Positions 11,475 through 15,988 of a stretch of DNA of 16,559 nt are shown piece by piece; positions within the stretch are counted from its first letter, which is position 1; each line of letters starts with the position of its first letter. The stretch covers positions 1 through 16,559 of the forward strand of contig DAOVJB010000008.1 in the NCBI GenBank assembly GCA_030673425.1, given 5' to 3'. The position numbers and the translations under genes are program-made. This stretch comes from Elusimicrobiota bacterium. GTDB taxonomy: Bacteria; CAYTYR01; UBA6262; DAOVJB01. Below the pieces are notes generated by a model. That model searched no databases and was not told the origin of the DNA. It saw only the letters and a program-made list of their open reading frames with translations.

Positions 11475-12107
11475 ATGAACCGCCTTTTCACGTATGATAA
11501 GGATGTAAGGAATAGGGGATATAACCTTGTTGCCGGTGTTGATGAAGCAGGACGTGGTCCGCTTGCGGGTCCGGTAGTAGCAGCTGCCGTGATACTATCA
11601 TCAAACTGTTACATAAACGGCCTAAAAGACTCTAAAAAACTCTCACCTAAAAAAAGATACCAAATCTACAAAATCATACACCAGGAGGCTATCGACATAG
11701 CCATCGGGATAGTCGATGTTGAAACTATTGATAAAATAAATATCCTTCAGGCATCTCTATTAGCTATGAAAAGGGCTATCCGCAACCTAAAACAGACACC
11801 AGAATACCTACTGATAGATGGGCCATTCTCGCCTCTAGTCAATATACCCAGAACCACTATAATTAACGGAGAGGACCGGAGCGCCGTCATTGCCAGTGCA
11901 TCGATTGTGGCAAAAGTAATTCGAGACAACATAATGATAAGACTTCATGAGAAATACCCGTTGTACTGTTTCAACAAACATAAGGGATACGGCACGTCCT
12001 TACATATATCTATTCTAAATCAACATGGTCCGTGTAGAATCCACAGACAGACTTTTAACCGTGTAAAGAATTGTGATATATTAAACATAAAAGCAAAAAG
12101 GACATAG
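11475..12107 (+). CDS. rnhB: Ribonuclease HII
   Basis: RNase HII cuts RNA in RNA-DNA hybrids and removes single ribonucleotides from DNA. The 210-residue protein has VAGVDEAGRGPLAGPVVAAA (19-38; Asp23-Glu24), LKDSKKLSPKKR (50-61), LLIDGP (112-117; Asp115) and ASIVAKVIRD (142-151; Asp151), the expected acidic catalytic set. HKGYGTSLH and HRQTF mark the C-terminal region. It stands 16 bp after rplS as in many bacteria. The frequent next gene (a YraN-type endonuclease) is replaced here by a chemotaxis-type methyltransferase 3 bp downstream. Confidence 0.97.
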   Translation: MNRLFTYDKDVRNRGYNLVAGVDEAGRGPLAGPVVAAAVILSSNCYINGLKDSKKLSPKKRYQIYKIIHQEAIDIAIGIVDVETIDKINILQASLLAMKRAIRNLKQTPEYLLIDGPFSPLVNIPRTTIINGEDRSAVIASASIVAKVIRDNIMIRLHEKYPLYCFNKHKGYGTSLHISILNQHGPCRIHRQTFNRVKNCDILNIKAKRT

Positions 12108-12110
12108 AGT

Positions 12111-13202
12111 ATGCAACTTAGAAATATCATGTTAAACATAGTATCTGACTTGCTGGATCAGACTCTATTAAAAACATATGATATCTGTAAATGTGAGAAA
12201 TGCAGGACGGACATTATTGCCTATGTCCTGAGCCGCATACCAGCTAAATACGTAACTACAGATGTTGGAGCTATATCCACTCTGGTTGAACAGGAAAAGG
12301 TGGAGAATGAGGCTGAAATAATAAGGAAAATAATAGAAGCTATAAAAACAATAGGCAAATATCCTCAGCATGAATTTAAGAAGGGCTCTAAAGAGGATAA
12401 GGACAAAGCCTTTGAACTTCTCCTGGACAATATATACCAAACAAGAGGTATTGATTTCAGGAGATACTTAGCCAGGGTACTAAAGCGGAGAATATCTCGC
12501 AGGATGACAGTAAATAAAGTAAAAAGCTACTCTGATTATTTAAGAGTATTAACGTCTAATCCGAAAGAATACGATGAATTATTCAATGTACTAACAATTA
12601 ACGTTTCAGAATTCTTCAGGGATGCCAAGATATTCAACACAATCAGAAAAACACTATCTGAAGTAATAGAAGATAAAATCAAGAGAGGAAAATACTCAAT
12701 TAAAATCTGGAGTGCCGGATGTGCCAGCGGAGAGGAACCTTATTCTATCGCCATAGCTTTGCGCGAAATTATAGAAAAAGAAGGGGTTCCGTTTAATATT
12801 TCGATTATAGCTACAGATATAGATGACAAATGCCTTAAGGTTGCAAAAACAGCAGAGTATAAACAAATAAGTCTTAGGAATGTAAATAAATATTTATTGC
12901 AAAAATACTTTATGCCTACCCACGGGAAATACAGAGTAAAGGACGAGATAAAAAGACTGGTAACATTTTATCATCATAACCTGATTGCCGATACTCATTT
13001 TGAAAAGGTTGATATTGTCTTCTGCAGAAATGTATTTATATTTTTCAACCGCAGCCTGCAGGAACATCTGATAATGACTTTCTACAAAGCCCTTAAAAAA
13101 GACGGCTATCTTATACTGGGTGCAGTAGAAACATTCCTGGGAGAGGCAAAATTGGTCTTTAATGAAATAGATTTAAAGGCAAGAATATATCAGAAGATAT
13201 AA
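12111..13202 (+). CDS. ComFB domain fused to CheR-type protein-glutamate O-methyltransferase
   Basis: This 363-residue protein has two parts. Residues 1-95 resemble the late-competence ComFB family: cysteines 26, 28 and 31 in CKCEKCRTDIIAYVLSRIPA, then KYVTT, and a helix ending AIKTIGKYPQHE. Residues 105-363 are a CheR methyltransferase, with the helical N-domain at 105-165 (FRRYLARVLKRRISRRM), TINVSEFFRD (162-171), the SAM-binding IWSAGCASGEEPYS (199-212), ATDID, VDIVFCRNVFIFF and GYLILGAVETF. CheR methylates glutamates of chemoreceptors or other signalling proteins. No receptor, CheB or CheA gene is in view. ComFB proteins have been reported to bind cyclic dinucleotides in cyanobacteria, so a c-di-NMP-controlled methyltransferase is possible, but this is inference. 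AAAAGGAC lies 7 bp before the ATG. Last gene of its operon. Confidence 0.88.
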   Translation: MQLRNIMLNIVSDLLDQTLLKTYDICKCEKCRTDIIAYVLSRIPAKYVTTDVGAISTLVEQEKVENEAEIIRKIIEAIKTIGKYPQHEFKKGSKEDKDKAFELLLDNIYQTRGIDFRRYLARVLKRRISRRMTVNKVKSYSDYLRVLTSNPKEYDELFNVLTINVSEFFRDAKIFNTIRKTLSEVIEDKIKRGKYSIKIWSAGCASGEEPYSIAIALREIIEKEGVPFNISIIATDIDDKCLKVAKTAEYKQISLRNVNKYLLQKYFMPTHGKYRVKDEIKRLVTFYHHNLIADTHFEKVDIVFCRNVFIFFNRSLQEHLIMTFYKALKKDGYLILGAVETFLGEAKLVFNEIDLKARIYQKI

Positions 13203-13221
13203 TTTTAAAATAACCCTAAAA

Positions 13222-13251
13222 GACCACCAAAAAAAATTGGTGGTTTTTTTT
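13222..13251 (+). terminator. Rho-independent terminator after the ComFB-CheR gene
   Basis: A perfect 8-bp stem, ACCACCAA (13223-13230) with TTGGTGGT (13237-13244), has an A6 loop and is followed by a run of Ts to 13251. It closes the long PASTA-to-CheR operon. Confidence 0.93.
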
Positions 13252-13290: not shown

Positions 13291-13305
13291 GTAAACATTG
13301 TAAAC
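13291..13305 (+). repeat. Cluster A: two GTAAAC boxes, 9-bp phase, at the pilD-parA operon promoter
   Basis: GTAAAC at 13291-13296 and again at 13300-13305, same orientation, 9 bp apart start to start. The hexamer and phase match the larger clusters in and after the RHH-protein gene of the same operon. The likely role is an operator for autorepression by the RHH protein. Confidence 0.6.
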
Positions 13306-13321
13306 ATATACCAGATATAGT
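13292..13321 (+). promoter_or_regulatory. Candidate promoter of pilD-lipoprotein-parA-RHH operon
   Basis: A TATAGT -10-like box (13316-13321) has an 18-bp spacer to TAAACA (13292-13297, four of six consensus bases), which lies inside the GTAAAC boxes. The predicted start near 13328 leaves a leader of about 30 nt before the GTG at 13358. The -35 match is weak. The case rests on position after a terminator and on the overlap with the repeats. Confidence 0.4.
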
Positions 13322-13357: not shown

Positions 13358-14188
13358 GTGAATATACTCCATACATTGTATGCTATATTTGTTTTCTGCT
13401 TTGGCCTGGCTTTCGGAAGTTTAGCTAATGTTTGCATCTGGCGTATTCCCCGTGAAGAATCCATCATATCACCAGGTTCACATTGCCCTAAATGTAATAG
13501 TTCTATAAAATGGTACGATAACATTCCTCTTATAAGCTTCATCTTCCTGGGAGCAAAATGCAGATATTGTAAGAATACAATCTCCTGGCAATATCCTCTT
13601 GTGGAACTGGCAACCGGACTTATATTTGCCACTTTATTCTTAAGATTCGGCTTCAATATAACATTCTTCATTAATCTAATTCTTGTTTACTTCCTTATAA
13701 TAATCAGCGGTATAGATTTCAAAACACAGTTAATACCGGACGTCCTGAGCATTCCTCTTATGGGAATAGGTCTTATCACCAGCTTTATAAATCCTGTATT
13801 GAGAATCCCCAGTTATAAATTGCATGTTTTCATAGGCGTGCCCATACCTATACCGATTGTCCATTTTATGTCGGCTATACTGGGCATATTAGTAGGGGGA
13901 GGACTCCTTTATTTCATCGCCTGGGTCAGCAGGGGAGGAATGGGAGGCGGTGATATTAAGCTTGCAGCCGCGATAGGGGCCTTTTTTGGCTGGGAAAACA
14001 TTCTCTGGACATTAGGGGTAGCCTTTTTCATTGGAGGTATTTTAGCCCTGATTCTGTTGGTCTCAGGCCTAAAGAAAAGGAAGGATCCCATACCTTTTGG
14101 GCCTTGTATAGCTCTTAGAGCCTTAATAGTTATGTCGTTCCGTTCATTTTTATACAATCTCTTATTCTATAGTTCGATAATTTTCTGA
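13358..14188 (+). CDS. Prepilin peptidase (type IV leader peptidase, A24 family)
   Basis: This 276-residue polytopic membrane aspartic protease cleaves, and often N-methylates, type IV pilin-like or pseudopilin precursors. The cytoplasmic zinc-binding insert has two pairs of cysteines: CPKC (43-46) and CRYC (68-71). The Asp pairs in GIDFKTQLIPD (119-128) and GMGGGDIK (194-201, Asp199) are the catalytic motifs. GSLANVCIWRIPR (20-32) is the usual N-terminal signature and FGPCIALRALI the C-terminal one. The GTG start has GAAAGGAG (13345-13352) upstream. No pilin, pilB or pilC gene is in view. Unusually, it leads an operon with a lipoprotein, parA and an RHH-protein gene. Confidence 0.95.
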   Translation: MNILHTLYAIFVFCFGLAFGSLANVCIWRIPREESIISPGSHCPKCNSSIKWYDNIPLISFIFLGAKCRYCKNTISWQYPLVELATGLIFATLFLRFGFNITFFINLILVYFLIIISGIDFKTQLIPDVLSIPLMGIGLITSFINPVLRIPSYKLHVFIGVPIPIPIVHFMSAILGILVGGGLLYFIAWVSRGGMGGGDIKLAAAIGAFFGWENILWTLGVAFFIGGILALILLVSGLKKRKDPIPFGPCIALRALIVMSFRSFLYNLLFYSSIIF

Positions 14189-14189
14189 T

Positions 14190-14558
14190 ATGATGTTAAA
14201 AAAATACTCGATAAAATTAATTCTGATACTGTTAATCCTCGCCTCCTTAAGCGTGGGGTGTAATTTTGGAATCTGGGGGAAGAATAGGGGATCTATTTCA
14301 GGTAAAATCTTAGATTCGAGTAACTCGCCTATTACTGAAGCTAAAGTAACCACATTTCCAGCTACTATAATAATGACCACTAATAAAAACGGTTATTTTA
14401 ATATCGATAACGTCGAAAAGGGAGACTACACGGTCACTATAACAAAAGCAGGTTATACCACAAAAACTACTTCCTGCAGGCTTGACGGTGGAGCAAGCTT
14501 CAGCTGTTGGGGAAGCAGTAATAATACTTACGTAGAGATCCATCTTACTTTGAACTAA
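14190..14558 (+). CDS. Small lipoprotein with carboxypeptidase-regulatory-like (Ig-like) domain
   Basis: This 122-residue protein has a lipoprotein signal peptide: basic MMLKKYSIK, hydrophobic residues 10-20, then LSVGC with the lipidated Cys24. Ser at position -3 is less usual than Leu or Val. Residues about 33-100 form one carboxypeptidase-regulatory-like beta-sandwich: GSISGKILDSSNSPITEAKV, then GYFNIDNVEKGDYTVTITKAGY. These domains are common add-ons of surface proteins and carry no catalysis. Two further cysteines (CRLDGGASFSC) could form a disulfide. The first ATG comes 1 bp after the prepilin peptidase stop, with another ATG next to it and no clear ribosome binding site, so translation is probably coupled. 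Function unknown. Confidence 0.8.
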   Translation: MMLKKYSIKLILILLILASLSVGCNFGIWGKNRGSISGKILDSSNSPITEAKVTTFPATIIMTTNKNGYFNIDNVEKGDYTVTITKAGYTTKTTSCRLDGGASFSCWGSSNNTYVEIHLTLN

Positions 14559-14589: not shown

Positions 14590-15348
14590 ATGCGAATTAT
14601 AGCCTTGATTAACCAAAAAGGTGGCTCTGGAAAGACAACCACGGCTGTTAATTTAGGAGCAAGCCTGGCTAAACTAAACAAACGAGTATTAATAATCGAT
14701 ATAGACCCCCAGGCACACGCTACGATACATTTAGGAGTTGACCTCCAGAAGCTTGAAAATTCTATCTACGAGGTACTAATTTCCGGAAAATCCCTAAAAG
14801 AAGTCATATCTAAGACAGAAATGGATAATTTAGAACTCGTTCCTTCTCATATCAATCTTTCAGGTGCTGAGATTGAACTGGTCAACATGATCGGGAGAGA
14901 AACCATTCTTAAGGATAATATCAATAAGTTAAAGGCAAAATATGACTATATTCTTATTGATTGTCCTCCTTCGTTAGGGCTATTGACCCTTAACGCTTTA
15001 ACGACTGCAAACGAGGTAATGATTCCCATCCAGACCGAATACTTGGCCCTGGAGGGTATGAGTAAGCTCGTAAGCACCATAGAGATTGTAAGAAAGAGGT
15101 TGAATAAGAACCTGGAGATCACGGGTATTATTCCTACGATGTACGATTCACGGACGAATTTGAGCCAGGAGGTCTTAGATAATATATCCGGATATTTTAA
15201 GAAGAAAGTCTTTAAGACCGTGATCAGGCAGAATATTCGTTTAGCTGAAGCACCGTCGTATGGGAAACCAATAGTTCTATATTCCGCTAGAGCCCATGGT
15301 AATGAGGATTACATGAAATTAGCAAAGGAGGTGATTCGTCGTGGTTAA
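14590..15348 (+). CDS. parA: ParA/Soj-family partitioning ATPase
   Basis: This 252-residue deviant-Walker ATPase forms ATP-dependent dimers on nonspecific DNA and moves a partner-bound cargo. Motifs are KGGSGKTT (10-17, with signature Lys10), LIIDIDPQAH (34-43) and ILIDCPPSLGLLTLNAL (121-137). LEGMSKLVSTI and IRLAEAPSYGKPIVLY are typical of Soj, the chromosomal ParA. It lacks the N-terminal HTH of type Ia plasmid ParA. The start is ATG 14590, 5 bp after AGGAGGTGA (14576-14584); the in-frame GTG at 14581 belongs to that site. It overlaps the RHH-protein gene by 8 bp. No ParB-type gene follows; the RHH protein takes its place. Cargo could be DNA, but ParA-like ATPases also place pili or chemoreceptor arrays. 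Confidence 0.94.
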   Translation: MRIIALINQKGGSGKTTTAVNLGASLAKLNKRVLIIDIDPQAHATIHLGVDLQKLENSIYEVLISGKSLKEVISKTEMDNLELVPSHINLSGAEIELVNMIGRETILKDNINKLKAKYDYILIDCPPSLGLLTLNALTTANEVMIPIQTEYLALEGMSKLVSTIEIVRKRLNKNLEITGIIPTMYDSRTNLSQEVLDNISGYFKKKVFKTVIRQNIRLAEAPSYGKPIVLYSARAHGNEDYMKLAKEVIRRG

Positions 15349-15664
15349 AAAGAAGGCACTCGGACAGGATCCATTTAAGAAAAAATTATTTCCATGGATA
15401 AAGAACACCGAGGAAGAGAAAGAGGAGAGAATCACCCAAGCACAAAACACCCGAACACAGACGATAGAGAAAGCTAGCAAACAACGTTTACTAAGTAAAC
15501 AAAGTTTACCAAGTAATTCTGAGACATTAAGGCAGACTTATCATCTTAATGTCGACAATGTAGAGAAAATCAAGCAGTATGCTTACATAGAGCGACTAAA
15601 GATTTCAGAAGTAGTGAATAGAGCCCTTGAAGATTTTTTCAAAAAGAATAGGATTACCTTGTAA
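15341..15664 (+). CDS. Ribbon-helix-helix (CopG/ParG-like) protein, likely ParA partner
   Basis: This 107-residue protein starts at a GTG preceded by a very strong AAAGGAGGTGA (15324-15334) inside the end of parA, which it overlaps by 8 bp. The C-terminus is an RHH DNA-binding domain: strand LRQTYHLN (63-70), helix at about 71-84, turn, and helix KISEVVNRALEDFFKKN (87-103). RHH dimers insert the paired strands into the major groove. Residues 1-60 are charged and low in hydrophobics, probably flexible. The tip MVKKKALGQDPFKKK recalls the basic ATPase-stimulating tails of ParG and of ParB proteins that partner ParA. Codons 46-60 overlap a set of phased GTTTAC/GTAAAC hexamers. I infer that it binds these repeats and regulates ParA; the domain call is firm, the function inferred. 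Confidence 0.87.
   Translation: MVKKKALGQDPFKKKLFPWIKNTEEEKEERITQAQNTRTQTIEKASKQRLLSKQSLPSNSETLRQTYHLNVDNVEKIKQYAYIERLKISEVVNRALEDFFKKNRITL
15477..15518 (+). repeat. Cluster B: five phased 9-bp units inside the RHH-protein gene
   Basis: Hexamers GCAAAC (15477), GTTTAC (15486), GTAAAC (15495), GTTTAC (15504) and GTAATT (15513) start exactly 9 bp apart. GTTTAC and GTAAAC are reverse complements, so exact units alternate in orientation. The period equals three codons, and the region encodes the disordered SKQRLLSKQSLPSNS, so the DNA sites may be embedded in tolerant coding sequence. Confidence 0.65.
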
Positions 15665-15729
15665 ACAAGGATTACATTGTATACACTGTTTTTGTAGTTT
15701 ACAGTATTTACTATGTAAACAAGGTAATT
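15652..15729 (+). repeat. Cluster C: nine phased 9-bp units, candidate centromere
   Basis: Hexamers begin every 9 bp without a slip: GATTAC 15652, GTAAAC 15661, GATTAC 15670, GTATAC 15679, GTTTTT 15688, GTTTAC 15697, ATTTAC 15706, GTAAAC 15715, GTAATT 15724. The loose consensus is GTWWAC followed by three variable bases. The array overlaps the stop codon of the RHH-protein gene (15662-15664) and ends at the AT-rich stretch TTTTATATAATA. Such tandem short sites are what RHH centromere-binding proteins and MetJ/Arc-type repressors use. This is the largest of the four clusters. Confidence 0.75.
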
Positions 15730-15771
15730 TTATATAATACCCAGAGACGACTATAGAGAAGAGAGAGAATA

Positions 15772-15804
15772 GTAACTTAAGTTTACTGAGTAAACAAGGT
15801 AAAC
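15772..15804 (+). repeat. Cluster D: four phased 9-bp units before the operon terminator
   Basis: GTAACT (15772), GTTTAC (15781), GTAAAC (15790) and GTAAAC (15799) begin 9 bp apart. The longer string GTAAACAAGG occurs here at 15790 and in cluster C at 15661 and 15715. This cluster is out of phase with cluster C (48 bp between nearest unit starts). Confidence 0.7.
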
Positions 15805-15817
15805 ATAATCAAAAATG

Positions 15818-15867
15818 CCCTTTTTAAGCTCCGTGGAGTAACCAGATGAGCTCAAAAGGGTTTTTTT
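15818..15867 (+). terminator. Long bipartite hairpin terminator of the parA operon
   Basis: CCCTTTT (15818-15824) pairs with AAAAGGG (15854-15860), and AGCTC (15827-15831) pairs with GAGCT (15848-15852), with small unpaired bases between the two stems. A seven-T run follows (15861-15867). The loop may also form CTCC-GT-GGAG locally. It is strong and larger than the other terminators in the window. Confidence 0.85.
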
Positions 15868-15988
15868 GTGTCTTTATCGTCGTTAAAACTCTATAAATGC
15901 GATTTTAACCACTTAAAACATATTTATATAGGTAATAATACCTCTAAAACTCCTCGAAAACCTCTAAATAAGCCAAAAAGTACCTGGT

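What the first reader, a model, noticed from the sequence alone, without database searches (positions are those of the whole stretch)
15477..15804. Phased 9-bp GTAAAC/GTTTAC arrays in and after a ParA-RHH pair: candidate unusual centromere
Eighteen hexamer units in three clusters (starts 15477-15513, 15652-15724, 15772-15799) keep an exact 9-bp start-to-start spacing within each cluster. Many are the same hexamer in either orientation, and the rest differ by one to three bases. They flank and overlap a gene for an RHH protein directly after parA. Known RHH partition systems (ParG, Omega, ParR types) use tandem short repeats as centromere and operator. A 9-bp period with mixed orientation, three dispersed clusters and a Soj-type ATPase is a combination I do not recognise. 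The arrays are seen directly; the segregation or positioning role is inference.
Basis: partly seen in the sequence, partly recalled or inferred. Interest (0 to 1): 0.85.

Follow-up and report, generated by a model that had tools for sequence, protein, structure and literature searches.

The report
Chromosomal ParA partner with repeat-array centromere
A bacterial chromosome carries, next to a pilus-processing gene, a plasmid-style DNA-positioning kit (a ParA motor, a small DNA-binding partner and evenly spaced binding-site arrays found nowhere else in that genome); the kind is known from plasmids, but its place on a chromosome beside a normal ParA/ParB system is unusual.

Summary
The arrays are real and far beyond chance. 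Eighteen GTWWAC-like hexamers lie in three clusters (A 15477-15518, B 15652-15729, C 15772-15804) with exact 9-bp spacing inside each cluster. A scan of the 1.32-Mb genome for four such units (up to 3 mismatches) hits only these clusters; the reversed control gives none. Best reading: a type Ib-like ParA-RHH-iteron partition module whose 107-aa partner autoregulates at the upstream pair and uses the arrays as centromere. It is a second ParA; canonical parA-parB with parS-like sites is on another contig. The "unrecognised combination" has precedents: pSM19035 (mixed-orientation heptads, three clusters), pMF1 (iterons up- and downstream), pCXC100, and pCF10, where I find a 9-bp phased array directly 3' of prgO. 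Less usual are the chromosomal contig, the operon with pilD, and one array inside the RHH reading frame. The pair is absent from the four same-class genomes held. Binding and segregation are inferred.

The parts
13218..13249 (+). terminator-like hairpin that separates the cheR-like gene from the operon
   Evidence: 13 pairs followed by T-run
13291..13305 (.). site D: two exact GTAAAC units 9 bp apart, candidate operator of the operon
   Evidence: only other GTAAAC/GTTTAC pair at this spacing in the genome; overlaps a promoter-like match 13292-13321
13358..14188 (+). prepilin peptidase (PilD-like), first gene of the operon
   Evidence: Pfam A24_N_bact 1.8e-34 and Peptidase_A24 1.5e-16
14190..14558 (+). 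small carboxypeptidase-regulatory-domain protein, lipoprotein-like N-terminus
   Evidence: Pfam CarboxypepD_reg 3e-14; Cys after signal-like stretch seen in translation
14590..15348 (+). parA, 252 aa, deviant Walker A KGGSGKTT, no N-terminal extension
   Evidence: Pfam AAA_31 4.9e-69; strong RBS upstream; second ParA of the genome
15341..15664 (+). rhh, 107 aa partner with RHH-like C-terminus, start overlaps the end of parA
   Evidence: weak profile matches to PrgO 0.009, Arc-like repressors 0.006, ParA-linked RHH family E 0.001
15477..15518 (.). cluster A: five 9-bp phased units inside the rhh reading frame, orientations alternate
   Evidence: synonymous recoding gives it in about 5 of 10,000 trials
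15652..15729 (.). cluster B: nine 9-bp phased units across the rhh stop codon, its two ends inverted copies of each other
   Evidence: inverted ends seen
15772..15804 (.). cluster C: four 9-bp phased units downstream of rhh
15815..15868 (+). hairpin followed by a T-run, likely terminator of the operon
   Evidence: sequence and fold

Best explanation
This is a chromosomally located type Ib-like ParABS module. The small RHH protein binds GTWWAC hexamers as dimers placed every 9 bp, in either orientation. At the two-unit site D it represses the pilD-lipoprotein-parA-rhh operon. At clusters A-C, with B as the main site, it builds nucleoprotein arrays whose basic N-terminal tails activate the nucleoid-bound ParA ATPase, so that this chromosomal region (or the replicon that once carried the module) is moved or spaced by a ParA diffusion ratchet. 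Shown: the arrays, their uniqueness in the genome, the gene order, an intact ParA. Inferred: that the RHH protein binds them, autoregulation, ATPase activation, and any segregation role.
For: Arrays occur only here in 1.32 Mb, and the one further GTAAAC pair lies in front of the same operon, over a promoter-like match. ParA size and lack of an N-terminal domain, and partner size, fit type Ib. The partner has weak but consistent RHH matches. Cluster A is kept beyond what codon choice would give. Known systems have the same layout: mixed orientation and three clusters, upstream and downstream iterons with autorepression, a 9-bp array 3' of prgO. Four or more contiguous repeats are needed to activate ParA in pSM19035 and orientation is free: clusters A and B reach that number, site D does not.
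Against: No binding data. RHH identity rests on weak scores, and the single-sequence model shows no strand. No orthologous pair exists to test conservation. The genome has a canonical ParAB, so a need for a second system is not evident. Other chromosomal ParA-RHH pairs show no arrays.
Confidence: 0.68

Rival explanations
1. Remnant of an integrated plasmid or mobile element: the module once served a plasmid, and is now only a decaying or incompatibility-causing relic in the chromosome.
For: Pair absent from all four same-class genomes; weak tree sister is a plasmid ParA; ParA not a copy of the resident one.
Against: Both reading frames intact and overlapping, arrays still largely exact, site D sits in front of pilD as if wired into the operon; no integrase or replication gene in the window, though the contig ends 750 bp downstream.
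Confidence: 0.15
2. Regulatory only: the RHH protein is a repressor of its operon and the arrays are an extended operator; ParA modulates it, and nothing is segregated.
For: Site D at the promoter; RHH proteins are commonly repressors; operon includes pilD.
Against: Most units lie inside and after rhh, far from the promoter, where an operator has little use; partition RHH proteins do both jobs.
Confidence: 0.1
3. RNA-level element: the inverted units form hairpins in the 3' part of the mRNA.
For: 15640-15740 folds better than shuffles, z -4.4.
Against: Directly repeated units in cluster C and at site D cannot pair with each other; the 9-bp step is kept in coding, untranslated and promoter DNA alike; mixed-orientation iterons give inverted repeats as a by-product.
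Confidence: 0.03
4. Assembly artefact: a plasmid fragment joined to a chromosomal contig in the metagenome assembly.
For: Incomplete draft, 199 contigs, 88% complete; contig ends about 750 bp after the array.
Against: The same rare GTAAAC pair lies before pilD, 1.3 kb upstream of parA, and the four genes are tightly packed, so a join would have to fall before site D; 13 kb of chromosomal-type genes precede it.
Confidence: 0.03
5. Chance or a protein-coding triplet-of-codons repeat.
For: Cluster A is in frame with a three-codon step.
Against: Clusters B and C are almost wholly non-coding; simulations, genome scan and recoding test all exclude it.
Confidence: 0.01

Closest known systems
pSM19035 delta-omega (type Ib ParABS)
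   Same: ParA plus small RHH partner; short phased repeats in both orientations, three clusters, also at promoters; detector recovers its 7-bp period
   Different: 7-bp WATCAC-type heptads without spacer; plasmid; delta and omega transcribed separately; ParA very distant
pCF10 PrgP-PrgO
   Same: ParA plus small partner, with a 9-bp phased array directly 3' of the partner gene
   Different: TATAT-type core; plasmid; PrgP far longer and very distant in the tree; centromere role of that array not checked in the literature
pCXC100 ParA-ParB (Leifsonia)
   Same: RHH partner and, from memory, 9-nt repeats (Huang et al. 2011; paper not held)
   Different: direct repeats only; plasmid
pMF1 parCAB (Myxococcus)
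   Same: type Ib; iterons upstream and downstream of the operon; partner autorepresses
   Different: 8-bp AGATGTCT-type units, also spread over the plasmid; extra ParC
Archaeal SegA-SegB
   Same: chromosomal ParA-like plus RHH protein
   Different: 13-bp TCTAGASTCTAGA sites scattered over the chromosome; motif not enriched in the window
ParA-RHH pair before pilB in the phylum of L090
   Same: chromosomal ParA-RHH pair beside type IV pilus genes; similar short basic N-terminus
   Different: no phased arrays; ParA in a separate clade

Membership tests
type Ib ParABS | ParA of 192-308 aa without N-terminal DNA-binding domain | tested here: met
   252 aa; AAA_31 match begins at residue 1; definition
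type Ib ParABS | partner of 46-131 aa directly after parA | tested here: met
   107 aa, overlapping start
type Ib ParABS | partner has an RHH fold | tested here: inconclusive
   weak profile matches; model unusable
type Ib ParABS | short iterons near the operon, upstream and/or downstream | tested here: met
   site D upstream, clusters B and C downstream, A inside
type Ib ParABS | partner binds iterons, represses operon, stimulates ParA | not testable with these tools
   needs biochemistry
type Ib ParABS | carried by a plasmid (usual, not strictly defining) | tested here: not met
   13 kb of chromosomal-type genes on the same contig
canonical chromosomal ParABS (Soj/Spo0J) | ParB of the Spo0J family as partner | tested here: not met
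   only ParB match of the genome is on C31
canonical chromosomal ParABS (Soj/Spo0J) | parS sites near the genes | tested here: not met
   parS-like sites on C31 and C27, none on C66
SegAB | 13-bp TCTAGASTCTAGA sites | tested here: not met
   one 3-mismatch hit at 11827, fewer than chance, none in the operon; window only

The most novel reading that the evidence does not exclude
A chromosomal ParA-RHH-iteron module that does not serve replicon inheritance but positions or regulates a type IV pilus locus: here in one operon with pilD, and in a different phylum a separate ParA-RHH pair kept directly before pilB.
Probability: 0.12. Interest if true: 0.75.

Novelty: new variant of a known kind. Interest (0 to 1): 0.45.

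Why it matters
RHH-based ParABS systems are known in bacteria mainly as plasmid stability devices. A bacterial chromosome that keeps one beside a canonical ParAB, with its own centromere-like arrays and inside a pilus-gene operon, would show either domestication of a plasmid segregation system or a new cargo for the ParA ratchet. Arrays within the coding sequence and after the RHH gene also widen the ways such centromeres can be built.

Tried and rejected
Chance and codon repetition: rejected. parS for the resident Spo0J: rejected. Recent duplication of the resident ParA: rejected by tree. Viral origin: the RHH scan of viral contigs found none, the ParA scan only two partial hits. Plasmid search with the RHH protein found nothing meaningful. 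The 9-bp signal beside the Lawsonia plasmid parA is an (AAT)n run. Single-sequence AlphaFold of the RHH protein was all-helix with pTM 0.32 and not usable, so no fold search was made. A 9-bp signal inside the Smac51 plasmid RHH gene is weak (11/18, 9/15) and not relied on. SegAB motif absent. PADLOC, TelA and TOM-type hits of the RHH protein look spurious.

Full report
Exact runs of three GTAAAC/GTTTAC units occur twice; no run of three arose in 200 Markov simulations of the window. In the 1.32-Mb draft genome the three-unit pattern occurs only here, and the four-unit pattern with up to three mismatches gives ten places, all in these three clusters, with none for the reversed control. The clusters are not in phase with each other. 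Cluster A lies in the linker region of the RHH reading frame; random synonymous recoding of that peptide gives such an array in about 5 of 10,000 trials.

Two exact GTAAAC units at 13291-13305 are, outside the clusters, the only GTAAAC/GTTTAC pair at this spacing in the genome. They follow a terminator-like hairpin (13218-13249) and overlap a promoter-like match at 13292-13321, just before a tight run of four genes: prepilin peptidase, a carboxypeptidase-regulatory-domain protein, parA and rhh. The promoter match is a consensus hit only, and such hits are no more frequent here than in shuffles. A hairpin with a T-run closes the unit after cluster C.

The ParA is 252 aa with an intact deviant Walker motif and no N-terminal extension. 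The genome has another, canonical parA-parB pair on contig C31 beside an rsmG-like gene, with parS-like sites on the same contig. In a tree of 44 ParAs the window ParA falls outside the well-supported clade of mostly ParB-partnered ParAs, while the C31 copy groups with its class relatives. Its weakly supported sister is a Prosthecochloris plasmid ParA. It is therefore not a recent copy of the resident gene.

The 107-aa partner starts 8 bp before the end of parA. Its C-terminus reads as strand-helix-helix by eye and gives weak matches to PrgO (E 0.009), to Arc-like repressors (E 0.006) and, by hhalign, to a family of RHH proteins that also follow ParA (E 0.001 but probability only 21.6%). A mixed profile that includes it finds ParG at E 0.011 and omega at E 0.38 among solved structures. 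The single-sequence model made no strand. RHH identity is likely, not proven. Its N-terminus, MVKKKALGQDPF, resembles that of the partner in G006 (MVKKKRTLGSNPL) and of a partner on a plasmid of Deltaproteobacteria bacterium Smac51 (MAAKSKKMGVDPF, read by eye from the DNA). In known type Ib systems the flexible N-terminal tail activates ParA; that the shared motif does so here is inference.

Comparison. Type Ib systems have ParAs of 192-308 aa, partners of 46-131 aa, iterons upstream and/or downstream, and autorepression. Omega of pSM19035 binds mixed-orientation heptads in three clusters, and full ParA activation needs four or more contiguous repeats, in any orientation. A phased-word detector recovers omega's 7-bp period, an 8-bp period beside a Bacteroides plasmid ParA-RHH pair, and a 9-bp array directly after prgO on pCF10. 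So the architecture is of a known kind. It differs in lying on a chromosomal contig, sharing an operon with pilD, using GTWWAC, and having one array inside the RHH gene.

Context in relatives. The four same-class genomes have no relative of the RHH protein. ParA matches were found in three of them; the two placed in the tree group with the resident C31 ParA. Their pilD sits in a pilC-pilin-pilD type cluster without parA where the flank is long enough to see it. In a different phylum a ParA-RHH pair precedes pilB in ten of the twelve loci recovered besides L090, with an invariant N-terminal RLGPQ motif but without phased arrays. A further chromosomal ParA-RHH pair in G006 also lacks arrays. Chromosomal ParA-RHH pairs are thus not unique to this genome, but phased arrays beside a chromosomal pair were seen only here.

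Mechanism. The most economical account is an autoregulated type Ib-like partition module with site D as operator and cluster B as main centromere. Whether it still moves anything is unknown; a remnant of an integrated plasmid is the main rival. The pilus link (pilD here, pilB elsewhere) is suggestive but rests on two unrelated neighbourhoods.

Noticed in passing
L090:6001-8722; L119-L127, L130, L139: A ParA-RHH pair directly upstream of a PilB-like ATPase is conserved across the phylum of an Omnitrophota-labelled MAG, with an invariant RLGPQ N-terminal motif in the RHH protein and no phased arrays. It may be a distinct type IV pilus-linked ParA system and deserves its own study.
   Followed up: partly
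L148:6740-7838: Another chromosomal ParA-RHH pair (partner begins MVKKKRTLGSNPL) in a 1.2-Mb genome of a different lineage, without phased arrays nearby.
   Followed up: partly
L113:1521-1600: pCF10 carries a 9-bp phased TATAT-core array of about nine units directly 3' of prgO, a candidate centromere.
   Followed up: partly
window 15652-15729: The two ends of cluster B are inverted copies (GATTACCTTGTAAAC / GTAAACAAGGTAATT), so the cluster is a quasi-palindrome; its RNA folds better than shuffles, z -4.4.
   Followed up: partly
window 12111-13202: CheR methyltransferase with an N-terminal ComFB domain, just upstream of the operon.
   Followed up: no
L101:1501-1515 (G000:C89:4760-4774): A palindrome GTATACTTAGTATAC, the only GTWWAC pair at 9 bp outside the window's operon, in an intergenic stretch.
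   Followed up: no
L107 and L131: 8-bp phased ATAGTA/GTAGTA arrays upstream of parA beside a Bacteroides plasmid ParA-RHH pair and in a phage-labelled faecal contig with a near-identical ParA.
   Followed up: no
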